A model generated the notes under the pieces. That model was not told the origin of the DNA and ran no database searches. It saw nothing but the letters and a program-made list of their open reading frames with translations. 48,368 nt of DNA from a virus. The translations under genes and the position numbers were made by a program. Of the stretch, positions 1-48,276 are shown piece after piece (position 1 is the stretch's first letter; each line of letters begins with the position of its first letter). The stretch covers positions 1 to 48,368 of the IMG/VR virus record IMGVR_UViG_3300013132_000077; one strand, 5' to 3'.

Positions 1-99
1 GGTTTAAAAATATATGGTAAGGAACTTGCCATTACAAAGGTGGAGAGGAAATCAGACTTTGGAAACAAAGCATACTCTATGAAGCCTGAAACACATTAG
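1..99 (+). pseudogene. tnpB: C-terminal end of a TnpB (IS605-type) protein, cut by the window edge
   Basis: An open frame enters from the left edge and ends at TAG 97-99; the last residues are KAYSMKPETH. The protein tail alone is not diagnostic. The call rests on the DNA: its stop codon lies inside a hairpin followed by TAGTTCAT, and the same hairpin and tail end the clear TnpB fragment at 9958-10317 and the one at the right edge of the window. TnpB is the RNA-guided nuclease of IS200/IS605 elements, and its 3' end normally overlaps the right end and the guide RNA. Whether the gene is complete upstream cannot be seen here. Confidence 0.6.
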
Positions 100-122
100 T
101 CTTTAGCTAATGTGTAGTTCAT
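92..122 (+). mobile_element. IS605-type right-end hairpin, copy 1
   Basis: An 8-bp stem CACATTAG/CTAATGTG encloses the loop TCTTTAG and is followed by TAGTTCAT. The loop and tail are identical in copies at 10310-10340 and 48246-48276 (minus strand), while the stem differs with compensating changes. This fits the right end that a TnpA transposase would recognise and the 3' end of a TnpB guide RNA. The bases after 122 (TAAACGAAAAAAAC) would be the flank and guide. Confidence 0.7.
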
Positions 123-133
123 TAAACGAAAAA

Positions 134-162
134 AACACAGAATTTTTAGTATTCTGTGTTTT
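134..162. terminator. Bidirectional hairpin terminator
   Basis: ACACAGAAT (135-143) pairs with ATTCTGTGT (151-159), with A-runs before and T-runs after. It separates the TnpB end from the convergent HAD gene. Confidence 0.7.
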
Positions 163-167
163 ATCGA

Positions 168-704
168 TTAGTTCGTTGAAGAACCTTGTATTGTTGTCGC
201 TGTTTTTTTCACTACGTCTACTATAGTGTACTTTATATCTACTCCTTTAGACCATTCTACGAATTTTGGAAGATGTTCTTCTCTGTCGTCGTAGAATATC
301 AGCTCGGACACTCCAAGTCGTTTTATGGTCTGTTCTAGAAGGTGGCATTTGAATATGAATGTGTCTCCGCCCCAGTTTAGATGCACTTCGTCGAATTCTA
401 TATTGTTGTCTCTCAAAATCTTTTCGATATTTTCTTTCATGCCTGGAACTTTTGCGAGCCTGCCCGTTGCCAATATCACGTATGCTTTCGGGTCAGATAT
501 CGCATCTAGATACTTTTTGTAGGTCCATTCGTTTTTTGGAATGTCGAAAATCTCGTCGTCTATTGATTCCGGCTTTCCCCACCATCCTCTGTGTGGCCAT
601 TCCGTGCCGGTCTTTTCCTTCCATATCTCTTTTCCTTCTTCAGGAAGAGGCGTGTGGAACAGCGTGTCGTCGAAGTCGAAGCAGATGAGTCTTTCGTATT
701 GCAT
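168..704 (-). CDS. HAD-superfamily phosphatase, related to the HAD domain of Swiss-army-knife RNA repair proteins
   Basis: A 178-residue HAD hydrolase. Motif I is DFDDTL at residues 10-15, with D10 as likely nucleophile and D12 as general acid. Motif II is ILATGR, and the acidic motif IV is FYDDREEH. The short cap and the phrase ILATGR fit the HAD_SAK group (PF10307), whose members in RNA-repair fusions are thought to remove end phosphates. Free-standing copies occur in large phages. The substrate cannot be read from sequence. A TATATTTG element (723-730, minus strand) lies 18 bases before the ATG, so it is probably transcribed alone and early. It may work with the 2H phosphoesterase at 47029; that link is inference. 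Confidence 0.75.
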   Translation of the reverse strand: MQYERLICFDFDDTLFHTPLPEEGKEIWKEKTGTEWPHRGWWGKPESIDDEIFDIPKNEWTYKKYLDAISDPKAYVILATGRLAKVPGMKENIEKILRDNNIEFDEVHLNWGGDTFIFKCHLLEQTIKRLGVSELIFYDDREEHLPKFVEWSKGVDIKYTIVDVVKKTATTIQGSSTN

Positions 705-722
705 TTCTGTTTTTTTATTTTA

Positions 723-730
723 CAAATATA
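723..730 (-). promoter_or_regulatory. TATATTTG (-7 type) promoter element of the HAD gene
   Basis: TATATTTG on the minus strand, 18 bases before the ATG at 704. It fits TAnnTTTG of Bacteroidota. No clear -33 TTG is seen. The same element sits 16-17 bases before the genes starting at 7927 and 9156. Confidence 0.5.
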
Positions 731-773
731 TATAAATTATTTTGATATATAACCTAAAAAATAATACTTCTCT

Positions 774-1337
774 ATGATAAGGAATAAAATAATATTGTGG
801 CTTTCGCTGAGCGTCGTCGTTCTTTTTTCATCTCTGATGATTCTCTTTAGGCTGTATAAGAACGAGCGAGAAGAGAGTGCTCGATATCGAAACAACATGG
901 TTGCTTTGATAAAGGACAATTCCAGGCAGCAGTCTCTTACTATCCGAGAACTTAAAGACCTATATCCAAAATTCGACTCTATTGCCAAATCGCTTAATAT
1001 AAAGACGAAAAACATAACCAATATAGTAGATACTAGATATCGATTCAGAGATTCTATACTTACCACTACGGTTTTGAAAGTCGACAGCATATCCGAAAAG
1101 AAATTTTTTTCCATGAAGAATGGGTGCTATGATTTTTCTGGATATGTCGATAGAGATTCCATATCTTTCACCAACAAAGAGTTCAAAGATAACATAGCTA
1201 CTTTTCTATACAAAGATTGGGAAAAGAAGTATCTATGGGGTTTGATAAAGATACGGCCATATTATAGCGTCAAAGTATATAGCGAATGTATGAAAGACAC
1301 TATTGGCGTTGTGAACAATATAAAAATCAAAGATTAA
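774..1337 (+). CDS. Membrane-anchored coiled-coil protein (DUF6549-like, possible spanin)
   Basis: 187 residues. An N-terminal transmembrane segment (about residues 6-24) is followed by a charged helical stretch (about 27-70, KNEREESARYRNN onward) and a C-terminal half that looks like beta structure. This shape, one N-terminal anchor plus a periplasmic coiled coil, is that of inner-membrane spanins (Rz type) and of DUF6549 proteins common in Bacteroidota phages and prophages. No lysozyme, holin or outer spanin is visible next to it, so a lysis role is only a suggestion. Confidence 0.5.
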   Translation: MIRNKIILWLSLSVVVLFSSLMILFRLYKNEREESARYRNNMVALIKDNSRQQSLTIRELKDLYPKFDSIAKSLNIKTKNITNIVDTRYRFRDSILTTTVLKVDSISEKKFFSMKNGCYDFSGYVDRDSISFTNKEFKDNIATFLYKDWEKKYLWGLIKIRPYYSVKVYSECMKDTIGVVNNIKIKD

Positions 1338-1362
1338 AATCGAAAAAAACGGTATTTTATTG

Positions 1363-1374
1363 TTAATATATACC
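1363..1374 (+). promoter_or_regulatory. Late-type promoter motif TTAATATATACC
   Basis: Motif 22 bases before the ATG at 1397; one of the recurrent TTAATATATA sites that likely serve the gp55 sigma factor. Confidence 0.55.
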
Positions 1375-1396
1375 ATTATAAAAAATAAAGACAAAG

Positions 1397-1993
1397 ATGA
1401 AACATATCAGAAAATTTGAAAAGTTCAGAGTTCTGAAAAATAGAGAAGAGATAATCAGAGAATCTGTTCTTCAAGTGAACGATATCTACAAAGTCAAGAC
1501 TATGATAGACATACCACAGTCTTTGATCAACGCATATGTCAAGAAGGTTAAAGATACAACAGGAAAAAACCTGCGTCAGTTCTTCGGTGACGTTGATATC
1601 GCGGAAGAAATCGTTAAGTATATCACTATAAATAATACAGATGTAGAAAAGATACCAGGCAACGCTCTTATGGGTGGTGCTCAAGGTCAGGGACAAGGAC
1701 AAGTTCAGGTTCAGACTGACGCGGAGACTCAAGTTCAGTCACAGGTTCGGCCAGAAGGAGGACAGGGTCAAGGACAGGGACAAGGACAAGCTCAAGGACA
1801 AGCTCAAGGACAAGCTCAAGAAGGTGATTTTGAAGAACCGCAGGGTCAGACTCAAGTACAAGGACAGGCTCAAGTACAAGGACAGGCTCAAGTACAGGCT
1901 CAAGGACAAGGACAAGGACAGGCTCAAGGACAGGCTCAAGGACAAGCTCAAGGACAAGAAGAAGAGGAAGATGAAGAAGAACTTCCTGCATAG
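1397..1993 (+). CDS. Protein with capsid-targeting-like N-terminus and Gln-rich repeat tail
   Basis: 198 residues. It starts MKHIRKFEKF, the motif shared by a set of proteins in this window. Residues 1-90 look folded and mixed. From about 94 to 187 it is low complexity: repeats of QGQAQGQ and QVQ broken by short acidic patches, ending EEEEDEEELPA. The DNA of the tail is a run of CAAGGACAAGCT-like repeats. T4 internal head proteins carry a similar short leader, so this could be an internal or scaffold-like head protein; that is inference. A late-type motif lies upstream and a terminator follows at 2013. Confidence 0.75.
   Translation: MKHIRKFEKFRVLKNREEIIRESVLQVNDIYKVKTMIDIPQSLINAYVKKVKDTTGKNLRQFFGDVDIAEEIVKYITINNTDVEKIPGNALMGGAQGQGQGQVQVQTDAETQVQSQVRPEGGQGQGQGQGQAQGQAQGQAQEGDFEEPQGQTQVQGQAQVQGQAQVQAQGQGQGQAQGQAQGQAQGQEEEEDEEELPA
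1677..1962 (+). repeat. Tandem 6-bp-based repeats coding for Gln-Gly/Gln-Ala
   Basis: Irregular repeats of CAAGGACAAGCT, CAAGGACAGGCT and CAAGTACAAGGA, interrupted near 1820-1850 by a non-repeat acidic patch (GDFEEP). Such tracts are prone to change in copy number. Confidence 0.85.
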
Positions 1994-2012
1994 AAATAAT
2001 TAAATAAAGAAG

Positions 2013-2042
2013 CCCGTCAATTTAAAATTGGCGGGTTTTTTA
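2013..2042 (+). terminator. Rho-independent terminator
   Basis: CCCGTCAAT pairs with ATTGGCGGG (one G-T pair), loop TTAAA, then a run of T from 2036. Confidence 0.8.
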
Positions 2043-2050
2043 TTTTAATA

Positions 2051-2078
2051 TTGAGTAGTCGCAATTGCGACTACTCAA
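2051..2078. repeat. Perfect 28-bp palindrome centred on CAATTG
   Basis: Both arms read TTGAGTAGTCGCAA inward, giving perfect dyad symmetry over 28 bases, followed by TTTT and then the late motif at 2081. It follows directly on another terminator. It may be a second terminator, or a protein-binding operator in front of the gene at 2095. Confidence 0.8.
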
Positions 2079-2080
2079 TT

Positions 2081-2090
2081 TTAATATATA
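2081..2090 (+). promoter_or_regulatory. Late-type promoter motif TTAATATATA
   Basis: Ends 4 bases before the ATG at 2095, in the TTAATATATATCATATG context. Confidence 0.5.
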
Positions 2091-2094
2091 TCAT

Positions 2095-2322
2095 ATGAAG
2101 TATCTAAAGCTTTTTGAAGGATTCAAAGAATTGGAATTCTTAAATACGGTTACTTATAAGGGATATGTCAGAAATAGATTTCGGCCTGGAGATTTGGACA
2201 GCCTTTTGGATTGGAGATTTAGGCTTAAAGGCCTTAGAGACGAATCTTCGGACCAATTTGACATAGCCAATTATGACAAAGAGATAAAGGCGGTCGATTT
2301 TATAATATCAAGACATTTTTAA
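2095..2322 (+). CDS. Small protein with the MKYLKLFEGF leader
   Basis: 75 residues of unknown function. The ATG at 2095 is chosen over the TTG at 2065 because it begins the leader MKYLKLFEGF shared with neighbours, and because the earlier start would lie inside the palindrome. The body is mixed charged with RNRFRPGDLDSLLDWRFR. It is followed one base later by another small gene with the same leader. Confidence 0.65.
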   Translation: MKYLKLFEGFKELEFLNTVTYKGYVRNRFRPGDLDSLLDWRFRLKGLRDESSDQFDIANYDKEIKAVDFIISRHF

Positions 2323-2323
2323 T

Positions 2324-2416
2324 ATGAGATACATAAAGATATTCGAGCGATTTTCCAGCGAAGCCAAAATAGAGAAGAAGGTAAAGGAGATATGGAACGA
2401 TCTAGCTGACGATTAG
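2324..2416 (+). CDS. Very small protein with the same leader
   Basis: 30 residues: MRYIKIFERFSSE, then a charged amphipathic helix ending WNDLADD. It starts just after the stop of the previous gene, which suggests translational coupling. The leader is almost identical to that of the proteins at 2095 and 2452, and this is the main reason for accepting so short a gene. If the leader is cleaved in the head, only about 20 residues would remain. Confidence 0.5.
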   Translation: MRYIKIFERFSSEAKIEKKVKEIWNDLADD

Positions 2417-2437
2417 TGCATATTTTCAGGAAAGAAA

Positions 2438-2448
2438 TTAATATATAG
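2438..2448 (+). promoter_or_regulatory. Late-type promoter motif TTAATATATAG
   Basis: Ends 3 bases before the ATG at 2452. Confidence 0.5.
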
Positions 2449-2451
2449 TAT

Positions 2452-3111
2452 ATGAGATATCTGAAGACCTTTGAAAGCCACGTTCGCGAAAGCGGAGATG
2501 ACGTATTGATAATAGTAGATGTTCAGAAGTCTTTCAAGAAATTCTTTACCGACGCCTATGTCGACGCTCTCAAGAAATACTGCGATGGATTCAAGAAGGT
2601 CTATCAGATATGGGACAACCACGTAGATGGAAAGAACGTCGACAAAGACTACCTATACGACGAGGATCCTTCTGTAGTCGACCACTCGGACCTCTATGAT
2701 TTTCCAAACCAAGAAGAGCCTATAGAGAAAAGATATAACTATGATGTGGATGCTGACTTCTACAAGAACGTGCTCAGCGATGATGTTTATAGAGAGGTCA
2801 GCGAGAAGGAAGATTCGGGCGATCTCAGAAAAGGAGATGTTTTCCCTACTAAGGAAGGAACTCTTATCATTTATGTCGGCAACAACCACAAATGGTATCA
2901 TATGCCTAAGAGGCTGCATGAGCTGTTTGAAGAATTTTCGGAAGCGCAGTTGATGAATGAGTCTTTGGGAAAATTGAGAGATGTTGTTCTTGTCGGCGGC
3001 GCCGATGGCGAATGTCTCGAAGACATAAAGACCGCGGCGGAGGCTATGGGCGTCAGGCTTAGGATGGATCGAAAATACATCTACTCTGCTCAACATTGTC
3101 CTATAAAATAG
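2452..3111 (+). CDS. Isochorismatase-like cysteine hydrolase with capsid-targeting-like leader
   Basis: 219 residues. After the leader MRYLKTFESH comes an isochorismatase/nicotinamidase fold: LIIVDVQKSF (residues 19-28, with the usual catalytic Asp), and near the end VVLVGGADGECLEDI, which holds the expected nucleophilic Cys. A long insert (about 55-150) replaces the usual lysine region. Family members hydrolyse isochorismate, nicotinamide or related amides; the substrate here is unknown. The FES at 7-9 and a later MNES resemble possible prohead-protease sites. If the leader is functional, the enzyme may be packed in the head and delivered with the DNA; that is inference. Confidence 0.75.
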   Translation: MRYLKTFESHVRESGDDVLIIVDVQKSFKKFFTDAYVDALKKYCDGFKKVYQIWDNHVDGKNVDKDYLYDEDPSVVDHSDLYDFPNQEEPIEKRYNYDVDADFYKNVLSDDVYREVSEKEDSGDLRKGDVFPTKEGTLIIYVGNNHKWYHMPKRLHELFEEFSEAQLMNESLGKLRDVVLVGGADGECLEDIKTAAEAMGVRLRMDRKYIYSAQHCPIK

Positions 3112-3119
3112 AAAATATC

Positions 3120-3329
3120 ATGCCTGTAAAATCAAAGAACCAGTTCAAATATGTCTATGCCATGCGTAGAAAATATGGATCCAAAAAGAAGGCTCCTAAA
3201 AACATGAAATGGGTATTCAACCGCGATTGGACCGATAGCGTGTCATATAAAGATCTTCCTAAAAGGATAAAAGAAAGGTATATATTTGATTTTGTGGAAT
3301 ATATTAATGAGGTGCTACGCTACGATTAG
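3120..3329 (+). CDS. Small basic protein, unknown
   Basis: 69 residues starting MPVKSKNQFKYVYAMRRKYG, strongly basic in its first half. The ATG at 3120 is chosen; an upstream TTG at 3096 would overlap the previous gene. PVKSKNQFKY followed by a Lys-rich stretch is seen in small unnamed proteins of T4-like phages. Its 3' end overlaps the convergent gp25 gene by 15 bases. Confidence 0.6.
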   Translation: MPVKSKNQFKYVYAMRRKYGSKKKAPKNMKWVFNRDWTDSVSYKDLPKRIKERYIFDFVEYINEVLRYD

Positions 3330-3692
3330 ATATACATCCAGGTCTTTTATCTGGAAGAATACTTCCATTACTTCTTCGAATCTTTCCGGGTGTTCCAGAA
3401 AAGTTACTTTTAGCGTATAGTCTATTCCAGATATTTCCGGTATGTAGGTGCTTATCTGCATATGTAGATCCTCTTCTATTGTCTCGGATGACAGCTTTGT
3501 CTCGTGTAGATATATAGGAAGGTCGCCTCCGAATTCGAGGTCGAAAAGAACCTCTCCTTTGTTTGTGAAAAGAATCATTTCCCATTTTTGCACTATGACT
3601 CTGAGAACTTCGTCTTCTATCAGCGCCTTGTCTCTGAATCTTGGGTGTCCTGGATATCCTAGATAGAAATCCGTAAAGTTGAAGTTGGCCAT
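3315..3692 (-). CDS. gp25: Baseplate wedge protein gp25
   Basis: 125 residues, close to the T4 gp25 length. It has the GPW/gp25 domain: LGYPGHPRFRDKALIEDEVL, then RVIVQKWEMILFTNKGEV and a FGGDLPIYL segment. In T4 and other contractile systems gp25 lies in the inner baseplate wedge and joins the wedge to the sheath start. A TATATATAG motif lies just upstream on the minus strand (about 3697-3708). Minus-strand neighbour: gp44. Confidence 0.9.
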   Translation of the reverse strand: MANFNFTDFYLGYPGHPRFRDKALIEDEVLRVIVQKWEMILFTNKGEVLFDLEFGGDLPIYLHETKLSSETIEEDLHMQISTYIPEISGIDYTLKVTFLEHPERFEEVMEVFFQIKDLDVYLIVA

Positions 3693-3696
3693 ATTC

Positions 3697-3708
3697 TATA
3701 TATAAAAT
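3697..3708 (-). promoter_or_regulatory. Late-type TATATATAG motif before gp25
   Basis: On the minus strand TTTTATATATAG precedes the ATG at 3692 by a few bases, as with the other late-type sites. Confidence 0.4.
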
Positions 3709-3718
3709 CGGATATCTC

Positions 3719-4702
3719 CTATGTCGCCAATATCCTTTTCAGCTTTCCTATTATGGTCATTCCTATTATTATAGGATCCGCGTCGGATTCTATCTTTCCA
3801 CCATAGTCGGCTACTATGAAATTGCACTCGAATAGCTTATCTACGTTTTTTTGGTTTTGTATAGACCAGTCGATGAATGGCCTTCCCAATATCTTTATCA
3901 TCGATCCTATCTTTTCCGGACCAAACCTAGACATCAGAAAGTGATAGGTATCTTCGTATCCCGTATCTTCGTATAGATGCGAATATAGTTCTGATTTTGT
4001 CTTGGCGCTTATATTTGAAGATGTTCCGCTTATGTCTCCGGTTTCGATGAAATCCTGCAGGTCGACGAGTATGCTTCTAAAGTCTGGAAATTTCTTGTTT
4101 ATTATCTCTATTAGATTTTCTTTCGATATCTCCGCACCTTCCTTTGGCATTATCTCGTTCTGTATCTTTTTGTATATCTCGGTCTTCAGCTGCTTTTCTT
4201 CCTGCGTGTCCGTGCAGTCGAAGCATATTGACTTTATTCTGGACTTAAGCCCGTCCGATATCTTTTCTATATGGTTCGTTGTTATTATGAACCTCACGCT
4301 GTTGTTGTATTTTTCTATGAACGCCTTGAATGCGTCTTGGAATTGGGCGGATACTCTTTCGAATTCGTCCAAGAAGACGTATTTCACGTCTGATGACGAT
4401 TCGAACATAGGAGTGAACCTGCAGAAGTTCTGTATTTCCTCTCTTAGAACGTCTATAGAAGTGTCCATAGAGCAGTTCAGCTCTAGAAAGGGAGATTCCT
4501 TAGAGTATTTGCCTATCAGTATTCTTGCCAAGCTCGTCTTTCCGGTTCCGTAGTGGCCATAGAATATGTAGTGTTGGTTGACTCCGTTTTCGAATTGCTT
4601 CTTTATCCTGTTTGGGAGTATCGCGTCTTCCATTTTTTTTGGCCTCCATTTCTCCCATAGCAATATGCTGTTTGCAGACATCTTTTTATTGGTTTTTATC
4701 AC
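3719..4702 (-). CDS. gp44: Clamp-loader large subunit ATPase gp44
   Basis: 327 residues, against 319 in T4. The AAA+ core is clear: WRPKKMEDAI at the start, Walker A GHYGTGKTS (49-57), Walker B VFLDEFE (109-115) and sensor 1 IITTNH. The SRC motif of clamp loaders is seen as KSRIKS. With gp62 it loads the gp45 sliding clamp for replication and, in T4, for late transcription. gp62 and gp45 are not in this window. A 47-bp gap separates it from the divergent tail gene gp15. Confidence 0.9.
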   Translation of the reverse strand: MIKTNKKMSANSILLWEKWRPKKMEDAILPNRIKKQFENGVNQHYIFYGHYGTGKTSLARILIGKYSKESPFLELNCSMDTSIDVLREEIQNFCRFTPMFESSSDVKYVFLDEFERVSAQFQDAFKAFIEKYNNSVRFIITTNHIEKISDGLKSRIKSICFDCTDTQEEKQLKTEIYKKIQNEIMPKEGAEISKENLIEIINKKFPDFRSILVDLQDFIETGDISGTSSNISAKTKSELYSHLYEDTGYEDTYHFLMSRFGPEKIGSMIKILGRPFIDWSIQNQKNVDKLFECNFIVADYGGKIESDADPIIIGMTIIGKLKRILAT

Positions 4703-4734
4703 ATGATATATGCTTTCTTAGAGAGGAAGTTTAT

Positions 4735-4746
4735 TTAATATATAAC
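4735..4746 (+). promoter_or_regulatory. Late-type promoter motif TTAATATATAAC
   Basis: Ends 3 bases before the ATG at 4750, in the short gap between gp44 and gp15. Confidence 0.6.
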
Positions 4747-4749
4747 GGT

Positions 4750-5775: not shown

Positions 5776-5795
5776 AAAAAAACGGCTTTTTGACG

Positions 5796-5806
5796 TTAAT
5801 ATATAC
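5796..5806 (+). promoter_or_regulatory. Late-type promoter motif TTAATATATAC
   Basis: 30 bases before the ATG at 5836, followed by an A-rich leader. Confidence 0.55.
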
Positions 5807-5835
5807 TCATATACATAAAAAAAATTATTGAAAAT

Positions 5836-7119: not shown

Positions 7120-7137
7120 TATTTATACAAATAAATA

Positions 7138-7166
7138 AAAAATCCCCTTTTACAGGGGATTTTTTA
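7138..7166. terminator. Rho-independent terminator
   Basis: AAAAATCCCC pairs with GGGGATTTTT around the loop TTTTACA. Confidence 0.85.
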
Positions 7167-7246
7167 TTTATAAACTTTTTATTTTGTATCTACTATAACA
7201 TGAAAGCATGAAAATCTTACGTGATTTTAAAAATTAATGCATATGA

Positions 7247-7927: not shown

Positions 7928-7944
7928 ATCTGTCTTTTTAAATT

Positions 7945-7952: not shown

Positions 7953-7954
7953 AT

Positions 7955-9048: not shown

Positions 9049-9156
9049 TTATTTATTTATATTTCTAGTCATTGTTACTTGGTATTTAAAATACCCTGGG
9101 TGGTCTTTACTTTCTCTGATTAATTTACAATCAATTGCTTTTCTTCTTGTTTTCAT
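9049..9156 (-). CDS. Very small protein upstream of glutamine synthetase
   Basis: 35 residues, MKTRRKAIDCKLIRESKDHP and on, basic at the start. It is preceded by a TATATTTG element 16 bases before its ATG, the same spacing as for two other genes. It lies 17 bases before the glutamine synthetase ATG, so it may be a leader peptide or simply a small early gene in the same transcript. Confidence 0.5.
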   Translation of the reverse strand: MKTRRKAIDCKLIRESKDHPGYFKYQVTMTRNINK

Positions 9157-9220: not shown

Positions 9221-9853
9221 ATGAGTATAATTAAGAAGTTTAGTATTTTTGAATCGGTTAGAAGAACCGAAGTTCCAAAACATTTTATTCCACTAAATAG
9301 TATAGGATACTATCTTGATCCAAATGATGGAAATACATATGCTATGTTAAAGACCGGCGGTTATGAAGACGAACCTTATAGTGCAGAAGAATATCTTCAA
9401 GAAGATGAAGAAACCTGGGAAGAGCTTTCGGATGAAGAAAAAGACTTAGTAAACTCAGTTTGTAAAAGTTGTGAAGATATAGTAGAACCTTTTATAGATT
9501 GGAATCTAATAGAGGACATTAAAGATGTGGCTCTAGCAAACGAGATATTAGATAAAGGATATACTTTAAAAATAGAGGTCAAAGAACAAGACGTTGCAGA
9601 AAAAATCTATGTTGAATGGGTCGCTCACGACTACGACTATAAACACTATTACAAATTTTTCAAAAGTTTATTTAGTCAGATAGAAAACACCAATGGTGAT
9701 TTTTCTTATAATATATCTGTATATAGAAAAAACGGACCGGGTGGATATCTTCCGATGGCCAAAGGTTCAAAAGATGAGATAGATGTTTTAGAAATGATTG
9801 AACAGGTAAAAGATATGAATCCAGATAAAAGCATTTTTATGAAACAGGATTAA
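9221..9853 (+). CDS. Acidic protein of unknown function in an AT-rich island
   Basis: 210 residues. It starts MSIIKKFSIFESVRRTEVPK, a variant of the shared leader (F-E-S). The rest is acidic (EEYLQEDEETWEELSDEEKD) with no motif I recognise. Its codons (TTA, AGA, GAA, many A/T thirds) are more AT-rich than in most neighbours, and it is followed by a broken Smr gene and a TnpB remnant, so the stretch may be a recent arrival. Confidence 0.65.
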   Translation: MSIIKKFSIFESVRRTEVPKHFIPLNSIGYYLDPNDGNTYAMLKTGGYEDEPYSAEEYLQEDEETWEELSDEEKDLVNSVCKSCEDIVEPFIDWNLIEDIKDVALANEILDKGYTLKIEVKEQDVAEKIYVEWVAHDYDYKHYYKFFKSLFSQIENTNGDFSYNISVYRKNGPGGYLPMAKGSKDEIDVLEMIEQVKDMNPDKSIFMKQD

Positions 9854-9869: not shown

Positions 9870-9962
9870 ATGGTAAACAGATTAGATCTTCATGGAATAA
9901 AGCACGTTGATGTAGAAGTGTTAGTAGAAGACTTTATTCTTTCTGCTAAACCTACCTGTTAA
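9870..9962 (+). pseudogene. N-terminal fragment of an Smr-domain protein, cut by a TnpB insertion
   Basis: 30 residues: MVNRLDLHGIKHVDVEVLVE and DFILSAKPTC. LDLHGIKH is the start motif of the Smr domain, a nicking endonuclease/RNA-cleaving fold common as a small phage protein of about 80-90 residues. The frame stops exactly where homology to TnpB begins (near 9957). The missing Smr half is not found after the insertion, so the locus has lost sequence. Some bacterial Smr proteins cut mRNA at collided ribosomes, which is of interest beside tmRNA and RqcH parts, but this copy is dead. Confidence 0.65.
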
Positions 9963-10317
9963 ACACATTACAGATGCTTCATGGGGTAAATTCATTACTT
10001 TACTGGAGTATAAAGCCGTTTGGAATGATAAGCAGATAGTTAAAATTGATAGATTTTTCCCATCTAGCAAACAATGTAATAACTGTGGGTTTATAAATCA
10101 AAATTTAAAATTAGATTGTAGAGAATGGACTTGTCCATCTTGTAAATCTAAATTAGATAGAGATTTAAATGCTAGTAAAAATATCCTTAAAGAAGGAATT
10201 AAAATATCGTCCGGAACAGACGATTACAGACATGGAGCTCAAATAAGACCAGTTAAAACTGGCACAAGCGTCGAAGTGTTTAAAAAGAAGGAGCTTACGT
10301 CTCCGGAAACACGTTAG
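9958..10317 (+). pseudogene. tnpB: TnpB C-terminal half, 5'-truncated
   Basis: 119 codons without an own start, ending at TAG 10315. It has the RuvC/zinc part of TnpB: KIDRFFPSSKQCNNCG, then CREWTCPSCKSKLDRDLNAS. The CNNC and CPSC pairs are the zinc ribbon, and the D in DRDLNASKNI is the last RuvC acid. GAQIRPVKTGTS is typical of the tail. The N-terminal half and the left end are missing, so it cannot code an active nuclease. The stop lies within the right-end hairpin. Confidence 0.88.
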
Positions 10318-10340
10318 TCTTTAGCTAATGTGTAGTTCAT
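10310..10340 (+). mobile_element. IS605-type right-end hairpin, copy 2
   Basis: Stem CACGTTAG/CTAATGTG (one G-T pair), loop TCTTTAG, tail TAGTTCAT. Same structure as copies at 92 and 48246. The RNA 3' end of a TnpB guide RNA would fall here; flank after 10340 is ATTAGAAACTTTATCG. Confidence 0.75.
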
Positions 10341-10393
10341 ATTAGAAACTTTATCGCTATATTGCCATAAAATAGTATTCGTTTTTATATATT

Positions 10394-21899: not shown

Positions 21900-23333
21900 A
21901 TGGCAGAAAAAAAGCATAAGATGGAGTTTTCAAAAGAGCTCGAGCAGATTTTAGCAAAGCTGGAAAAGCAGGGAAACTACGTCGCGTGGGAGCTGCTCCT
22001 TATGAACGATCCTGACGCGGGGTCAGAACTTGAGGACATAATACACAAATCTGGCGTCGAGAGAGTAGACGTTTCTGAAAAGGACTACAGCTTTGTCGTG
22101 GAGACCACTGACGGAAAGAAGACCGAGATGAAGATCGGCGCCTTCATAAGAAAGTTCTTCGGCGACTTCTATGCGAACCATGAGATAGAGAAATTCTCCA
22201 ACCTATACAACATTGCAAAAGGTGGTGGCAAGAAGAAAGGAGAGCCTATAAAGGTCGGCAAGTTCTCGTATGATCCTAAAGACGTTAGAAAGACCTTTCT
22301 TTCTCTGGTGACCAAGACCTATCCTCATGGACATGAGGATGAGCTGCTTGAGTTCCTTCCTGAGCTCAAAAAAGACCGCGTCGGAAACTACTACGTCATG
22401 ATAGGCGGAGATAAGCCTGAAACCATGTTCACTTCGCATCTAGACACCGCGGATAGATCGCAGAGGACTACATATCTCTTCAGCGACAAAGAAGGAGAAG
22501 ACGAAATCATAGTGACTGATGGAACTTCGGTGCTGGGCGCCGACGACAAGTCTGGCGTGACCGTAATGCTTTATATGATGGCACATGGAATATCCGGGCT
22601 ATACTATTTCTTCATAGGCGAAGAAAGAGGCGGCATCGGATCGCACGCGCTTGCGGACATCTTCGAAGAGGTCCCTTACCTTCACAATCTAAAGAGATGC
22701 GTTTCTTTCGACAGGAGAAACTACCATTCCATAATAACTTCCCAGATGGGTGGCGAATGCTGCTCGGATGAGTTCGCGGAAGCGCTTTGCGACGCGTACA
22801 ACCAGCATGGAATGAGCATGAAGCCAGACAATACTGGAATATATACAGACTCTGCTTCCTTCATAGACGATATACCTGAGTGCACCAACGTCTCCGTTGG
22901 ATACTTCAACGAGCATACCGGTAACGAGAAGCAGAACATATCTTTCCTGGAGAGGCTCTGCAAGGCATCTGTCTCCATAGACTGGGAATCTCTTCCGACC
23001 AAAAGGTCTCTAGAGGAGATCATCTCGTTCAGGGCGACTGAGAAGGCGGCGCGCTCGAGATATAAAGACCTGCTTGATGAGTTCAAGTCTGCCGCGCCTT
23101 CTTTGGATCGGCTTGTTTCCGTGGAATATGGAAAGACCTATGTCTGCTTCGACCTCGAAGGGTCGGACCTCGCCACGATACATGATACGCTGGAATCCAT
23201 ATTGGCGGTTATGAAGACCACCAACAATCGTCCTGAAATCGCTAAGTCTGTTCATACCTACGAACACAACTGGAGGGCAGGAAACTGTCCTGTGGAATTC
23301 GACGAGACCTATCTGAAGATAAGAATAGAATAA
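21900..23333 (+). CDS. M20/M28-like zinc metallopeptidase (copy 1)
   Basis: 477 residues. A 120-residue N-terminal extension precedes the peptidase core. The zinc and catalytic residues are in FTSHLDTAD (His180, Asp182), VLGADDKSG (Asp215/216) and GEERGGIGS (Glu241, Glu242); a later His in FNEHTG completes the set. The core is strongly similar to the protein at 44135, which lacks the extension. It probably cuts short peptides or acts as an aminopeptidase; a virion role is also possible. The extra C-terminal 110 residues (from FRATEKAARSRYKDLL) are unassigned. Confidence 0.85.
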   Translation: MAEKKHKMEFSKELEQILAKLEKQGNYVAWELLLMNDPDAGSELEDIIHKSGVERVDVSEKDYSFVVETTDGKKTEMKIGAFIRKFFGDFYANHEIEKFSNLYNIAKGGGKKKGEPIKVGKFSYDPKDVRKTFLSLVTKTYPHGHEDELLEFLPELKKDRVGNYYVMIGGDKPETMFTSHLDTADRSQRTTYLFSDKEGEDEIIVTDGTSVLGADDKSGVTVMLYMMAHGISGLYYFFIGEERGGIGSHALADIFEEVPYLHNLKRCVSFDRRNYHSIITSQMGGECCSDEFAEALCDAYNQHGMSMKPDNTGIYTDSASFIDDIPECTNVSVGYFNEHTGNEKQNISFLERLCKASVSIDWESLPTKRSLEEIISFRATEKAARSRYKDLLDEFKSAAPSLDRLVSVEYGKTYVCFDLEGSDLATIHDTLESILAVMKTTNNRPEIAKSVHTYEHNWRAGNCPVEFDETYLKIRIE

Positions 23334-40968: not shown

Positions 40969-40983
40969 TATCGGAAAACTATA

Positions 40984-40997
40984 TTTAATATATAAAG
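40984..40997 (+). promoter_or_regulatory. Late-type motif TTTAATATATAAAG (second of two)
   Basis: Directly before the ATG at 40999. Tandem copies 29 bases apart are unique in the window. Confidence 0.55.
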
Positions 40998-40998
40998 A

Positions 40999-41556: not shown

Positions 41557-41560
41557 AAGA

Positions 41561-41586
41561 AAAAGAGAGCTTAGGCTCTCTTTTTC
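41561..41586. terminator. Bidirectional terminator
   Basis: AAAGAGAGC pairs with GCTCTCTTT around TTAG, with T-run; between convergent genes. Confidence 0.88.
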
Positions 41587-43074: not shown

Positions 43075-43110
43075 CTTTTTTTTTTGTTTTTTAATTTTAT
43101 CCTTTTTGGG

Positions 43111-43118
43111 TATCTTTG
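43111..43118 (+). promoter_or_regulatory. TATCTTTG (-7 type) element
   Basis: 23 bases before the ATG at 43142; a TTG lies 24 bases further upstream, slightly beyond the usual spacing. Confidence 0.45.
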
Positions 43119-43141
43119 TTTAGTTGAATCATATAATATCT

Positions 43142-43531
43142 ATGAAATTGGTCGGCAGGTCTGAAAAGGTCTATTTTCCTTCGCTCGGAGATAGTTTGTT
43201 AAGCGCCAAGATAGATACTGGCGCATATGGCAACAGCATGCATGCTGAAGAAGTTTCTGTTTCCGAAGGAGTGCTTAGCTTCGTTTCTATGGGCAGGCGG
43301 CATTCTTTTTCGGAATACAGGACGGTCTTGGTCAAGAACAGCTTTGGTGAGTCTCAAGAGAGATATTCCGTCGATGTCCCTATCTCGATAGGAGGCACCA
43401 CTTATCTTCTGGCGTTCTCCCTCGCAGACAGGAGCAGGCTGAAGCATCCAGTGCTCATAGGTCGCCGATTCCTCAGGAAGTTCGGCTATTTCGTAGACGT
43501 TAGAAAGAAAGACATAAATGATAAATCTTAG
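43142..43531 (+). CDS. Retropepsin-like aspartic protease (RimB/ATP-dependent zinc protease fold)
   Basis: 129 residues from the ATG at 43142 (an in-frame TTG lies upstream). LVGRSEKVYFPSLGDSLLSA, then KIDTGAYGNSMHAEEV carries the aspartic protease D-T-G-A. PVLIGRRFLRKFGYFVDV is the second conserved block. These proteins are annotated as zinc proteases but fold like retropepsins; bacterial members sit beside RimK, which adds Glu to ribosomal protein S6. No RimK is seen here. Confidence 0.8.
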   Translation: MKLVGRSEKVYFPSLGDSLLSAKIDTGAYGNSMHAEEVSVSEGVLSFVSMGRRHSFSEYRTVLVKNSFGESQERYSVDVPISIGGTTYLLAFSLADRSRLKHPVLIGRRFLRKFGYFVDVRKKDINDKS

Positions 43532-44063
43532 CCAGACAAACTACTTCACTGGAGAGATATCTCCCGTTTCTTCTGCTGTTTCCAAGATCGTGCAGTTCTT
43601 GGAAATAGACGGATCTAATCCTATATTCCTGACTCCTTCTATATCCAATCTTTCCAGCAATTCCAATACGATAGGGAAGTCGTGCACCATAGTGCCTAGA
43701 GTAGAATTCGCGGGAATCGCGGACTTCGACTATAAGCTCGCGGACAGAGGGCTGATGTTCAGATGCAACCTTATAGTCGCCGATTTGTGGCACCTCGACA
43801 GGACAGGAGTCGGAAACTACAGAAAGATGCTTGTGGAGACAGGCATAAGGCATATAATAATGGCGAGGGAATACCACTATTCCGAAAGTGAGGACGTCTC
43901 TGACTTCCACGTAGTCGTCAAATACGAAGGATCTATTCAGCTCGGATTCAAGTCCGAGACTACGATAACCGAAAAGAGGCAGAATTGGAAAGCCACTCTC
44001 GAAGAGCTGAAGAAAGGCTTCATAAGAGACCGCAGGCTAGACGGCCTTCTCGGAGAAGATTAG
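43518..44063 (+). CDS. Protein of unknown function
   Basis: 181 residues. SNLSSNSNTIGKSCTIVPRV and FAGIADFDYKLADRGLMFRC suggest a beta-rich enzyme-like fold; REYHYSESEDVSDFHVVVKY follows. No motif recognised. It overlaps the aspartic protease gene by 14 bases, so they are coupled. Confidence 0.6.
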   Translation: MINLSQTNYFTGEISPVSSAVSKIVQFLEIDGSNPIFLTPSISNLSSNSNTIGKSCTIVPRVEFAGIADFDYKLADRGLMFRCNLIVADLWHLDRTGVGNYRKMLVETGIRHIIMAREYHYSESEDVSDFHVVVKYEGSIQLGFKSETTITEKRQNWKATLEELKKGFIRDRRLDGLLGED

Positions 44064-44097
44064 CCGAAAATTGTGGATAAGTTTTGAAAATTTTCCT

Positions 44098-44105
44098 TAT
44101 ATTTG
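44098..44105 (+). promoter_or_regulatory. TATATTTG (-7 type) element
   Basis: 29 bases before the ATG at 44135, in CCTTATATTTGCATATAAC. Confidence 0.5.
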
Positions 44106-44134
44106 CATATAACGTTCATTAAACATACTATAAA

Positions 44135-45274
44135 ATGAGGATAACCAAAAAGTTCCTTTCTCTTACGAAAAAGACCTACCCTCACGGAAAAGAGCGCGAG
44201 CTCATATGCCATCTCCCATCCGGATACAAAGAAGACGGATTCGGCAACTTCTATCTGCAGATAGGAGACTCTCCTTCTACTATGTTCACTTGCCATCTAG
44301 ACACCGCGGACCGTTCGCAGTCCGAAGTGAGGCACGTCTTCCAGGGAAACATAATCAAGACAGACGGAAAGTCCATATTGGGAGCAGACGACAAAGCGGG
44401 AATGACCGTTATATTGTATATGATATCGAAAGGAGTCCCAGGCCTCTACTATTTCTTCGTAGGCGAAGAAGTAGGCTGTGTCGGTTCCAAGAAGGTCTCT
44501 GCGGCATGGCAGTCTCTTCCCTTCTCCGAGCATGTTACTAAAGTAGTATCCTTCGACCGAAGAGGCAACGAGTCCATCATAACACACCAGATGTTCGGCA
44601 GATGCTGCTCCGAATCTTTCGCGACAGAGCTTGCAAGCAGGCTGAACGCCGCAGGATGCGGGCTTTCTATGAGGCTCGACGACACGGGAATACTCACAGA
44701 CTCGGCCAAGTTCATGTCTATCGTTCCAGAGTGCACCAACATCTCCGTAGGATACCAGGCAGAGCACACTTTCGGGGAGTCTCAAGACATCGAGTTCTTG
44801 AAGAAGATAGCGAGAGCCGCTTCTCTGATAGACTGGGAGACTCTTCCGGCGACGAGAGACCCTAAAGTCGAAGACGACTGCGACTACTACGGATGGGGAT
44901 CCTTCGGCGGGTCTAGATACGACACCGGAAACTACTCGGACAAAGAGAGGGATTCCGACAAGTGGAAGGAAGAAAACTACACGCACGTCAAGCTGGATGG
45001 CAAGACTAAGAGAGTGTATATCTCGACTGATCAGATAGAAGAAGAGAAGGCTCTTATATACAAATGGCTCGGCGACCATCCAGAGTATTACGACATACAG
45101 TCTATCGTCTGGAACGGCAACTCTCTGTATTTCGAGTCGAGAAGCGGCGTTATGGAGTTCGTAGGGTCGAGATCCGAGCTGATGGACATGATTCCAGAGC
45201 TCGCGAGCGTTCCGAAGAGCGCCATATCCGAAGTCTTTCCTGGAAAGAGGAAGACCTTCATAAACTCTCTATAG
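44135..45274 (+). CDS. M20/M28-like zinc metallopeptidase (copy 2)
   Basis: 379 residues. MFTCHLDTAD (His54, Asp56), ILGADDKAG (Asp85) and VGEEVGCVGS (Glu111, Glu112) keep the zinc site, and SVGYQAEHT the last His. It lacks the 120-residue N-terminal extension of copy 1 at 21900 and differs after the core, with an acidic, Tyr-rich stretch (EDDCDYYGWGSFGGSRYDTG) and a small C-terminal alpha/beta domain. It has a host-type promoter element, while copy 1 follows a late-type site, so the two may act at different times. Confidence 0.85.
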   Translation: MRITKKFLSLTKKTYPHGKERELICHLPSGYKEDGFGNFYLQIGDSPSTMFTCHLDTADRSQSEVRHVFQGNIIKTDGKSILGADDKAGMTVILYMISKGVPGLYYFFVGEEVGCVGSKKVSAAWQSLPFSEHVTKVVSFDRRGNESIITHQMFGRCCSESFATELASRLNAAGCGLSMRLDDTGILTDSAKFMSIVPECTNISVGYQAEHTFGESQDIEFLKKIARAASLIDWETLPATRDPKVEDDCDYYGWGSFGGSRYDTGNYSDKERDSDKWKEENYTHVKLDGKTKRVYISTDQIEEEKALIYKWLGDHPEYYDIQSIVWNGNSLYFESRSGVMEFVGSRSELMDMIPELASVPKSAISEVFPGKRKTFINSL

Positions 45275-45277
45275 AAG

Positions 45278-45306
45278 AAAAGAGGCCATTTGGCCTCTTT
45301 TTTTTT
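45278..45306. terminator. Bidirectional terminator
   Basis: AAAGAGGCC pairs with GGCCTCTTT around ATTT, with T-run; between convergent genes. Confidence 0.88.
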
Positions 45307-45496
45307 ATCCTAGTATGATTCCAGGAGTCTTGTATTCCTTCTGAGATGAGATCTCGAGCATCTGGCTCGTAGTCAGCTCTCTCGGATTCCATCCTTTCTT
45401 CTTGGAATATTCGCTGATGAACTTCTCTCTGAGAAGCGTAGACTCTTCCGTGCTGATCGGATCGTTCTTGATCATCTTCATGTTCTTGTCTTCCAT
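45305..45496 (-). CDS. Small protein, unknown
   Basis: 63 residues: MEDKNMKMIKNDPISTEEST, then KKKGWNPRELTTSQMLEISS. WNPRELTTSQMLEI looks like an HTH-like or docking helix pair. A CCAATATATAAAAAC motif precedes the ATG on the minus strand. Confidence 0.6.
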   Translation of the reverse strand: MEDKNMKMIKNDPISTEESTLLREKFISEYSKKKGWNPRELTTSQMLEISSQKEYKTPGIILG

Positions 45497-45512
45497 GTCT
45501 TTTCTTTTGTTT

Positions 45513-46038
45513 TTATATATTGGATCTTAGCCATTCCACCTTTTCCATCTCTATCATAAGGCAGTTCGCGTCGGTGAAGAACTCGAATCCCAGCCTCTTC
45601 TTCACAACCGTGTCTCTTAGGCTCGACAGCTTCGTCTTCGCCATCGTGGAGAAAAGCTCTTCCTCAGGCGCCTGGAATCCAGGATCGTACTGCCTTAGCA
45701 GAAAATGTTCGTCGCTGAACTCCTCGTCCGAGAACTTCGCCATCAGCGCCAGGTCTGGCATGCACGCGAAGACCAGGCTGCCTCGGCACCGGATAGCCTT
45801 TCCTGTCGTCGAAGAAATCCTTGTATCTGTAGCTTCCTATCGTGCCCCTCCTGTCCGCGGAAAAGAACAGGCCAAAAGGCCCGAAGTTCGCGGCCTGCCT
45901 CCAGAGCAGGCTGTTGTCGAAAGAGAAATTCTTGCAGTTCTCTCTGAAGACGCGAAGGAATTCCTCTTCGTCTATCGACTTGGTCCTGGTCGGCGACTCT
46001 CTGTCCGCGAACTCCAGGAATTCTAAAATCTTCCTCAT
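45513..46038 (-). pseudogene. Gene with an apparent frameshift, unknown function
   Basis: Two overlapping minus-strand frames join well near 45780. The first (46038 down) gives MRKILEFLEFADRESPTRTK and on to FFDDRKGYPV; the second continues RGSLVFACMPDLALMAKFSD to the end VEWLRSNI. Removing one C in CCGGTGCCGAGG restores a protein of about 174 residues. Beyond the join the first frame becomes Arg/Pro/Gly-rich, as expected for an out-of-frame read. It may be a broken gene, a sequencing error or a programmed shift. Late-type motif upstream. Confidence 0.6.
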
Positions 46039-46041
46039 ATA

Positions 46042-46053
46042 GGTATATATTAA
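46042..46053 (-). promoter_or_regulatory. Late-type motif TTAATATATACC
   Basis: Minus strand, a few bases before the ATG at 46038. Confidence 0.5.
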
Positions 46054-46076
46054 GGATATAATCCGTATATTAGCGT

Positions 46077-46532
46077 ATGGAAAAGCAGCTAAAAAACTCA
46101 GACGCGCTGAAGTTCGTCTTCGCGGGAAACTCTACTGTCACGTTCTTCAACTCCGAGACTCAGAACAGGTTCACGTTCAAAGTCAAGAGATGCAAGGACA
46201 AAGATAAGCTGCTGTTCTTCGTCAGCGTATTGACCGGTCCTGGGCAATATTCCTATATGGGAACCTTCGCCAAAGGAAAGTATTCGCATGGAAAGAAGTC
46301 TGCCATGTCCGCTTCGGCGCAGTCCGCCAAAGTATTTCCATACGTGATCGACAAGCTTAGAGAAGGAACGCTTCCTTCGCAAGTAGAGATATGGCACGAA
46401 GGCGCTTGCGGAAAATGCGGTCGCCAGCTTACCGTTCCCGAGTCTATCGAGACCGGCATCGGCCCGGAGTGCGCGAAGTCTCTTTCCAAAGAGGAGAAGA
46501 GAGACATGGTACTTTCTAAGATATTGGGATGA
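46077..46532 (+). CDS. DUF6011 zinc-ribbon protein
   Basis: 151 residues. The C-terminal ACGKCGRQLTVPESIETGIG, PECAK is the DUF6011 zinc motif (CxxC ... C), common in phage proteins that bind nucleic acid or partner proteins. The N-terminal 100 residues form a beta-rich part (FVFAGNSTVTFFNSETQNRF). Its stop overlaps the next start. Confidence 0.75.
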   Translation: MEKQLKNSDALKFVFAGNSTVTFFNSETQNRFTFKVKRCKDKDKLLFFVSVLTGPGQYSYMGTFAKGKYSHGKKSAMSASAQSAKVFPYVIDKLREGTLPSQVEIWHEGACGKCGRQLTVPESIETGIGPECAKSLSKEEKRDMVLSKILG

Positions 46533-47008
46533 TGATAGTCTTCACCATACTGCAGTCCGCGATAATAGTCTTCTCGGTCATATACACCGGCCGCAGAATG
46601 AAGAAGTGTGAGCCTATTTCCTGGAAAGTGAAGAAAGGCATGAGATGCTATTCCTGCGCCGCGCCTCTTTGCAGCGATGCGGAAGAGACGGCCGCTAGGC
46701 TGTTCTCCGAAACGGAAGAATTCCGCCTGTGCAAGGCGTGCGAACGAGAAGAGAAGCTAGGCGTTGCGCTCGGATCCAAAAAGACGAAATACATCAACAG
46801 ATTTAAGAAGTTCTGCCATTCCGACAAATCCTACAAGATCAACATATACTTCGCGATGGGGCTGTTCGCCTGCATAATTCTCTCGGTGCTCGGAAAGGCG
46901 TTCTGGAAGACAGACTTCTATGGCATACTTTCTTTCTTCGCCAACGCGATCTACTGGGGATTATTCGTATACAGGTCTAAAATCTGCTTCGAGGAGGAAT
47001 CGAAGTAA
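46529..47008 (+). CDS. Membrane protein with Cys pairs
   Basis: 159 residues. Transmembrane segments at about 3-20 and two near 105-150 (YFAMGLFACIILSVLGKAFW; ILSFFANAIYWGLFVY). Between them are CYSCAAPLC and LCKACE, likely a cytoplasmic zinc-binding part. Coupled to the DUF6011 gene by ATGA. Role unknown. Confidence 0.65.
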   Translation: MMIVFTILQSAIIVFSVIYTGRRMKKCEPISWKVKKGMRCYSCAAPLCSDAEETAARLFSETEEFRLCKACEREEKLGVALGSKKTKYINRFKKFCHSDKSYKINIYFAMGLFACIILSVLGKAFWKTDFYGILSFFANAIYWGLFVYRSKICFEEESK

Positions 47009-47016
47009 TAAATGGC

Positions 47017-47024
47017 TATATTTG
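47017..47024 (+). promoter_or_regulatory. TATATTTG element close to a start
   Basis: Only 4 bases before the ATG at 47029. If used, the mRNA would begin near or at the ATG, so it may be chance. Confidence 0.3.
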
Positions 47025-47028
47025 CCTT

Positions 47029-47562
47029 ATGTTTGAGATAAAGGGAATATTGGAATTCGATCCTGTGAACGTTTCCAGGAAACACGAGCAGCAAGCCGCT
47101 TGGAAGAAGGTGGCCATGGTTCGCTTTGGCTCTCAGGACGAGACATACAGATACTACAAATGGCTTCTAGAGCAGAGATTCGGCCTGAGGGTTCCCGACG
47201 TGGATCCTTTCGTATGGAAGGGAAGGCTGAACGACCCCGTGAGAGGAACGCACGTCACCGCCATCAACGAGATAGTAGACGACGAGATATACGAGCAGGC
47301 TCGCAAGATGTTCCACGGAACGGAAGTGAGAGTCGCCTACGATCCTACTCTGATAAGATGCAACCGAAAAGGCGAAAGGATGTGGTGGCACATCAAAGCG
47401 TATTCAGACGATATAATGAACATACGCTCCGCCATGGGACTTGGACAGCCATACCACAGCCTGCACATGACTATAGGGCTCGTGAACCCGAAGTTCATAG
47501 AGCACACAGAATATATATTAAGCTCTTGCGAGAAGCTCGGGATCTACAATCCGATAAGATGA
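47029..47562 (+). CDS. 2H phosphoesterase-like protein
   Basis: 177 residues with the two H-x-T motifs of the 2H family: GTHVTAIN (His75, Thr77) and SLHMTIG (His146, Thr148), 71 residues apart, the usual spacing. 2H enzymes open 2',3'-cyclic phosphates in RNA repair or cut cyclic (oligo)nucleotides; T4 gp57B (Acb1) uses this fold to defeat CBASS. Which applies cannot be told from sequence. With the HAD gene at 168 it could form an RNA end-healing pair. Its stop overlaps the next start. Confidence 0.75.
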   Translation: MFEIKGILEFDPVNVSRKHEQQAAWKKVAMVRFGSQDETYRYYKWLLEQRFGLRVPDVDPFVWKGRLNDPVRGTHVTAINEIVDDEIYEQARKMFHGTEVRVAYDPTLIRCNRKGERMWWHIKAYSDDIMNIRSAMGLGQPYHSLHMTIGLVNPKFIEHTEYILSSCEKLGIYNPIR

Positions 47563-47888
47563 TGAAGGAATACGAAGAGATAAAGAAAGAAGAGGAAGAA
47601 TACACGCGAGGATTCTCCGAGAAGAAGCTCGACCGATACATAGGTGTATACAAGATTTTAGACAAGATATTGGACATGAGAGTCCTATGGGCCATCTCTG
47701 CCCTTATCTTCCTGGCCATACCTCTGGGTGTTCACTTTTCGGGAATCTTGTCTTTCGGCCCTATCGAGGCGCTGGTCATCACCATAGCGCACTATCTGTA
47801 TTGGAAGCTCAAAGGAGAGAAAGAGACTCTGAAGCTCTTGGACGATTGCCTGAGCTGTACATGGCGATTCGCGCGCTGCATGAGATAA
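47559..47888 (+). CDS. Small membrane protein with acidic coiled N-terminus
   Basis: 109 residues. Start at ATG 47559 (or the adjacent ATG 47562), overlapping the 2H gene stop. A longer frame from 47100 is rejected because it lies inside the 2H gene. MMKEYEEIKKEEEEYTRGFS is a charged helix, and two hydrophobic segments follow (VLWAISALIFLAIPLGVHF; ALVITIAHYLYW). The basic C-terminus ends RFARCMR. Coupling to a possible anti-defence enzyme is worth noting. Confidence 0.6.
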   Translation: MMKEYEEIKKEEEEYTRGFSEKKLDRYIGVYKILDKILDMRVLWAISALIFLAIPLGVHFSGILSFGPIEALVITIAHYLYWKLKGEKETLKLLDDCLSCTWRFARCMR

Positions 47889-47904
47889 AAAGAGGAAAGA
47901 AAGA

Positions 47905-48246
47905 ATGGATGATTTTTTCGACAGCTTCAGAAAGCCAGAGAAGAAGCACGAGCACAAAATAAAGGTGGTCCACTTCAAGAAGGAGCCATACGACGTCTAT
48001 ATAGGCAGGCTTCCTGGCGGGAAATACAACAAATGGGCCTATCCGAAAGAGCTTAGAGAGAGCTTTCCCGAGGGGACGCCGAGAAAGCAGATAGTCGCCG
48101 CGTACGAACAGTATCTTCTGTCCAACGAGGATCTGATGTCTTCTCTATGCGAGCTGAAGGACAAAGTGCTTGGATGTTGGTGTCGTCCTAAAAGGACATG
48201 TCATGGTGACATATTGGCCAAATGGGTTAAGAAGAAATGTAACTGA
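47905..48246 (+). CDS. DUF4326 protein
   Basis: 113 residues. KVVHFKKEPYDVYIGRLPGG, KYNKWAYP, QYLLSNEDLMSSL and KVLGCWCRPKRTCHGDILAK are the DUF4326 landmarks, with the CWC...CHGD block probably binding metal. Often found in phages near NADAR-like or nucleotide-processing genes; function unknown. The stop codon abuts the end of the TnpB element on the other strand. Confidence 0.85.
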   Translation: MDDFFDSFRKPEKKHEHKIKVVHFKKEPYDVYIGRLPGGKYNKWAYPKELRESFPEGTPRKQIVAAYEQYLLSNEDLMSSLCELKDKVLGCWCRPKRTCHGDILAKWVKKKCN

Positions 48247-48276
48247 TGAACTACTTATTGGCTAAAGACCAATAAG
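48246..48276 (-). mobile_element. IS605-type right-end hairpin, copy 3
   Basis: On the minus strand: stem CTTATTGG/CCAATAAG, loop TCTTTAG, tail TAGTTCAT. Compared with copy 1, stem bases differ on both sides while pairing is kept. Confidence 0.75.

What the first reader, a model, noticed from the sequence alone, without database searches (positions are those of the whole stretch)
92..48276. Three copies of an IS605-type right end with covarying stems
Loop TCTTTAG and tail TAGTTCAT are identical, while the stems are CACATTAG/CTAATGTG, CACGTTAG/CTAATGTG and CTTATTGG/CCAATAAG. Compensating changes prove that the structure is selected (transposase end and TnpB guide RNA). The three different flanks would be three guides. 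No TnpA is seen, so the elements may spread by TnpB-guided homing.
Basis: partly seen in the sequence, partly recalled or inferred. Interest (0 to 1): 0.7.

Follow-up and report, generated by a model that had tools for sequence, protein, structure and literature searches.

The report
Phage IS605 transposon right ends
A fragment of a T4-like phage genome carries the tail ends of three small jumping genes of the well-known IS605 type; the hairpins and their matched base changes are real, but the elements are cut off or broken here, and related phages carry complete copies with the normal transposase, so this is an ordinary case of a known kind.

Summary
The hairpin with loop TCTTTAG and tail TAGTTCAT occurs exactly three times (92-122 +, 10310-10340 +, 48246-48276 -) and never in shuffles. 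All three follow the 3' end of a tnpB gene. Two lie at the very ends of the contig, probably because assembly stopped inside a repeat. The middle one is a tnpB remnant without its 5' two thirds and left end. No complete element lies in the window, so the missing TnpA says nothing. The same right ends occur in about 30 other viral contigs. Several hold full elements (left-end hairpin, Y1 TnpA, divergent TnpB); others are TnpB-only, and two groups are 270-300 bp elements without genes that keep the 3' guide-RNA region. Stems covary strongly, and a second hairpin inside tnpB covaries too, which supports a guide RNA. The TCTTTAG stem-loop also caps the left end, outside the guide RNA, so TnpA binding is the simpler reason for it. 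Relatives lacking copies 2 and 3 exist; the copy 3 empty site reads TTTAT plus a near match to the predicted guide. IS605 elements in T4-like phages were published in 2010. Known kind; homing instead of TnpA transposition is not supported.

The parts
1..99 (+). Copy 1: last 32 codons of a tnpB cut off by the contig start (GLKIYGKELAITKVERKSDFGNKAYSMKPETH*)
   Evidence: 96% DNA identity over 123 bp to the full TnpA+TnpB element in L033
14..32 (+). Copy 1: internal hairpin of the predicted guide RNA (ATGGTAAG-GAA-CTTGCCAT)
   Evidence: covarying helix
92..122 (+). Copy 1: right-end hairpin (arms 92-99 and 107-114, loop 100-106) and tail TAGTTCAT (115-122)
123..142 (+). Copy 1: predicted guide (TAAACGAAAAAAACACAGAA), next to and partly in the terminator-like hairpin between the element and the HAD gene
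   Evidence: position by analogy with reRNA (PMC8612924); no matching empty site found
9870..9962 (+). 5' remnant of a small gene starting MVNRLDLHGIKH (Smr-like by eye, no Pfam match), cut where tnpB homology begins
9960..10317 (+). Copy 2: 5'-truncated tnpB (Zn finger CNNC/CPSC and RuvC-III DRD kept; RuvC-I and II lost), no start codon; Pfam Cas12f1-like_TNB E 1.5e-23
10206..10224 (+). Copy 2: internal hairpin of the predicted guide RNA (ATCGTCCG-GAA-CAGACGAT, one C-A mismatch)
10310..10340 (+). Copy 2: right-end hairpin and tail TAGTTCAT
10341..10360 (+). Copy 2: predicted guide (ATTAGAAACTTTATCGCTAT); native flank continuous with relatives that lack the element
48246..48368 (-). Copy 3: 3' end of a frame-shifted tnpB cut off by the contig end
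48246..48276 (-). Copy 3: right-end hairpin (CTTATTGG/CCAATAAG) and tail TAGTTCAT
48226..48245 (-). Copy 3: predicted guide (CAGTTACATTTCTTCTTAAC), overlapping the 3' end of the DUF4326 gene
   Evidence: empty site TTTAT+TAATTACATTTCTTTTTAAC in L210

Best explanation
The three hairpins are right ends of three separate insertions of one IS200/IS605-type family in a T4-like phage. A complete element starts 3' of a TTTAT site with a left-end hairpin, carries either divergent tnpA and tnpB or tnpB alone, and ends with tnpB running into the right-end hairpin and TAGTTCAT. Y1 TnpA would bind the single-stranded end hairpins and move the element; TnpB with an RNA from the tnpB 3' end, right end and about 16-20 nt of flank would cut the re-formed empty TTTAT+guide site so that the copy is restored by repair. 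In this window copies 1 and 3 are cut by the contig ends and copy 2 is a 5'-deleted remnant that can no longer move or make TnpB by itself. Shown here: family identity, ends, covariation of both hairpins, complete and gene-less relatives, empty sites for copies 2 and 3. Inferred: activity, RNA production, cutting and mobilisation in trans.
For: Exact motif three times, zero in shuffles. Each follows a tnpB 3' end. Same right end in about 30 other viral contigs. Y1 TnpA in 8 of 31 records over the cut-off. Left-end hairpins with the same loop TCTTTAG; 12 of 14 distinct left ends have TTTAT 9-14 nt before the hairpin foot AAAAC (my count). Full-length TnpB of a relative matches solved ISDra2 TnpB at E about 1e-79 and Pfam OrfB_IS605. 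Right-end stem: 7 of 8 pairs change on both sides, covariation 0.640 against 0.206 in shuffles and at most 0.144 when slid. Internal hairpin: 98% of cells paired, covariation 0.509 against 0.121. Copy 2: sequence right of the element matches relatives that lack it. Copy 3: the best TTTAT+guide match over 20 nt among all fetched loci is at the orthologous site in L210, 3 mismatches in 20.
Against: No complete element lies in the window, so membership rests on relatives. The loop and tail are constant in the alignment by construction of the search pattern, which also fixed some arm positions, and the genome-contig rows were picked because they form hairpins. No empty site for copy 1 was found: relatives have a ClpS-like gene directly after the HAD gene.
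Confidence: 0.92

Rival explanations
1. TnpA-free elements that spread by TnpB-guided homing between co-infecting phages: TnpB cuts the empty site of the other phage and the element is copied in by repair, with no transposase needed.
For: TnpB-only elements with intact ends exist in related contigs (L017, L021, L029); relatives lacking copies 2 and 3 exist; T4-like phages recombine heavily (established knowledge).
Against: Elements with the same ends carry a Y1 TnpA, which can act in trans. Constant hairpins at both ends are what TnpA needs and homing does not. Same-family copies sit at many unrelated sites, which homing alone does not give.
Confidence: 0.08
2. The right-end remnants are kept as stand-alone guide-RNA genes used in trans by TnpB, or by a nuclease-dead TnpB as a regulator, so copy 2 has a function of its own.
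For: Copy 2 keeps the complete predicted guide-RNA part with both hairpins. Gene-less 280-300 bp elements conserve that part at 84-97% while their middle drops to 53-54% between subgroups.
Against: Copy 2 has lost its left end. An almost identical right end (99% over 123 bp) lies in another contig, so its intactness may only mean that it is young. No transcription data.
Confidence: 0.1
3. Ordinary transcription terminators or regulatory hairpins of the phage.
For: They lie near gene ends.
Against: No run of T follows the stem; the stop codon of tnpB lies inside the stem in copies 1 and 2; identical tail and loop in unrelated contexts behind tnpB; no Rfam match.
Confidence: 0.01

Closest known systems
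ISCaje1-4, IS200/IS605 elements of T4-like Campylobacter phages CP220 and CPt10 (PMC2853527)
   Same: Several IS605-family elements in T4-like phages; four of five TnpB-only, one with TnpA and TnpB.
   Different: Different host and sequence; guide RNAs were not known at that time.
ISDra2 of Deinococcus radiodurans (PMC8612924)
   Same: TnpB homologous to the relatives' full-length TnpB (E about 1e-79); guide RNA from the tnpB 3' end, right end and flank; insertion 3' of a five-base motif that is also the TAM.
   Different: Motif TTTAT here (inferred from left flanks) against TTGAT; phage-borne.
IS605 elements and the PATE-like element of Halanaerobium hydrogeniformans (PMC7290912)
   Same: Divergent tnpA and tnpB, decayed copies, a gene-less copy keeping left-end hairpin, the last part of tnpB and the right end.
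   Different: Bacterial chromosome; conserved AAGCT in the loops there, TCTTTAG here.

Membership tests
IS200/IS605 family (IS605 type) | Right-end hairpin next to the 3' end of tnpB with a fixed element boundary | tested here: met
IS200/IS605 family (IS605 type) | Left-end hairpin and a fixed short target sequence at the left boundary | tested here: inconclusive
   Met in relatives; in the window the left ends of copies 1 and 3 are outside the contig and copy 2 lost its own
IS200/IS605 family (IS605 type) | Y1 (HUH) transposase TnpA | tested here: inconclusive
   Absent from the window, which holds no complete element; present in 8 of 31 contigs with the same right end, over the Pfam cut-off; HIH motif seen in the translations
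TnpB RNA-guided nuclease | RuvC D-E-D triad and zinc finger in the window's own copies | tested here: not met
   Copy 2 keeps only the zinc finger and RuvC-III; copies 1 and 3 are cut off. Triad present in most full-length relatives
TnpB RNA-guided nuclease | Guide RNA from the tnpB 3' end and right end | tested here: inconclusive
   Covarying internal hairpin and conservation without coding; no RNA data
TnpB RNA-guided nuclease | RNA-guided cutting of TAM plus flank | not testable with these tools
   Needs biochemistry

The most novel reading that the evidence does not exclude
In this phage group the IS605 family maintains gene-less elements that are just ends plus a guide RNA, borrowing TnpA and TnpB in trans from other copies; window copies 2 and 3 (no intact tnpB) could be the tails of such RNA-only parasites.
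Probability: 0.3. Interest if true: 0.5.

Novelty: new member of a known kind. Interest (0 to 1): 0.25.

Why it matters
As found, it adds a multi-copy example of IS605 elements in an uncultivated T4-like phage group and explains why the contig ends where it does. The more useful by-product is the set of gene-less 280-300 bp phage elements that conserve the guide-RNA part without coding for protein: they would allow a direct test of whether TnpB guide RNAs can be selected on their own and supplied in trans.

Tried and rejected
A decayed left end for copy 2 at about 9055-9130 (TCTTTAC in a weak 5-bp stem): rejected, because it reads as a small ORF on the minus strand and has no real hairpin. Scan of genome contigs for the right end: 12 hits, none preceded by a clear TnpB frame; some form good hairpins (Methanosarcina, Sulfurimonas and others), so this style of right end may be broader than phages, but no host was identified. 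The 210-aa ORF 9221-9853 found no relatives in viral contigs. Rfam gave nothing in the window. L032 (no hairpin, no tnpB) is a chance match to the pattern. TAM-plus-guide search for copies 1 and 2 gave only scattered matches with 3-5 mismatches in 16, which is background in AT-rich DNA.

Full report
What is there. The pattern TCTTTAG-N8-TAGTTCAT occurs three times in the window and in no shuffle. The window is a linear virus record of 48,368 bases without tRNA genes; it codes for a T4-type set of proteins (portal, prohead protease, major head protein, clamp loader), so it is most likely part of a larger T4-like phage genome.

Each hairpin closes a tnpB gene. Copy 1 is preceded by 32 codons that run in from the contig start. 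Copy 2 is preceded by an open frame with a TnpB zinc finger and RuvC-III (Pfam Cas12f1-like_TNB, E 1.5e-23); DNA matches to full-length relatives begin at 9960 in many comparisons, and just there a small upstream ORF (9870-9962) is cut short, so a deletion has probably fused the two. Copy 3 has the same 3' sequence but its reading frame is broken and it runs out at the contig end. Two of three copies therefore lie at the ends of the contig, as expected if assembly stops in a repeat. No complete element and no left end is present, so the absence of TnpA in the window is not evidence about the elements.

Relatives. A scan of viral contigs gave 32 stretches with the same right end, and whole-record searches found more copies. 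Many follow full TnpB genes of about 400 aa. These are 52-85% identical among themselves; one, in L019, is only 25-28% identical to the others. A full-length relative, from L017, matches ISDra2 TnpB structures at E about 1e-79. Eight of 31 records carry a Y1 transposase over the Pfam cut-off, in several cases next to and divergent from tnpB. Left ends are recognisable by a hairpin with the same loop TCTTTAG; by my count 12 of 14 distinct ones have TTTAT 9-14 nt before the hairpin foot. The subgroup of copy 2 (L017, L021, L029) is TnpB-only, while the subgroup of copy 1 (L006, L033) has TnpA as well; with the same end architecture, action of one TnpA on both is the simplest reading, but it is an inference.

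Covariation. In 24 distinct right ends 93% of cells pair and 7 of 8 pairs change on both sides. Caveats: the search pattern fixes loop, tail and part of one arm, I left out the two L009 forms and L032, and I kept only hairpin-forming rows from the genome scan, so the figures lean upward; the three window copies alone already show the effect. The left end has the same loop with its own varying stems, and it is not part of a guide RNA; so the stem-loop is best explained by TnpA binding. A separate hairpin about 80-110 nt upstream of the right end, inside the tnpB coding part, also covaries (8 rows; covariation 0.509 against 0.121 in shuffles). That one is not a transposon end and supports the guide RNA.

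Gene-less copies. Two groups of 270-300 bp elements keep left end, the tnpB 3' part and right end but no gene: L004/L007/L023 (about 90-93% identical at three different sites) and L255/L258/L260/L035. Between L035 and the rest of its group the guide-RNA part plus right end is 84-88% identical and the middle 53-54%. This resembles the PATE-like element of PMC7290912.

Empty sites. Relatives of the portal region lack copy 2, and their sequence joins that right of copy 2 at the element boundary. For copy 3, among all TTTAT sites in the fetched loci the best match to the predicted 20-nt guide (3 mismatches) lies in L210 at the orthologous place, 3' of the DUF4326 gene. For copy 1 no matching empty site was found; relatives have a ClpS-like gene next to the HAD gene instead.

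How it works. Most likely: TnpA (from a complete copy elsewhere in the phage or from a co-infecting phage) recognises the end hairpins in single-stranded DNA and moves the element to a TTTAT site; TnpB and its RNA then protect the copy number by cutting the vacated TTTAT+guide site. The occupied site ends in TTCAT, not TTTAT, so it would not be cut. The ends and sites are shown; the activities are inferred from PMC8612924.

What is known. IS605-family elements, mostly TnpB-only with one TnpA+TnpB, were described in T4-like Campylobacter phages in 2010 (PMC2853527). The guide RNA from the right end, the shared insertion motif and TAM, and repair-based restoration are from PMC8612924. TnpB relatives occur in 340 of 50,697 phage records, with several copies each in Lak phages. 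The finding is therefore real and correctly read as IS605-type, but ordinary; the claim of TnpA-free homing is not supported.

Noticed in passing
L019:1519-2770 (record G015): TnpB only 25-28% identical to the others, with Gly in place of the RuvC-II Glu (VIGDLT) and the zinc finger lost, but with the same kind of left and right end; possibly a nuclease-dead TnpB moved in trans.
   Followed up: partly
L010, minus strand, about 500 bp upstream of the right end (record G007): An open frame that looks like a GIY-YIG homing endonuclease runs in frame into a TnpB C-terminus and the right end.
   Followed up: no
L004, L007, L023, L255, L258, L260, L035: Gene-less 270-300 bp IS605 derivatives in phage contigs that conserve the predicted guide-RNA part.
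   Followed up: partly
window 9221-9853: 210-aa ORF (MSIIKKFSIFESV...) between conserved neighbours, missing at that place in the close relatives compared; no relatives found.
   Followed up: partly
window 21900-23333 and 44135-45274: Two paralogous peptidase genes (phrog_4191) with DNA-level similarity, 22 kb apart.
   Followed up: no
window 1679-1990: Repetitive glutamine-rich coding tract with a 12-base unit.
   Followed up: no
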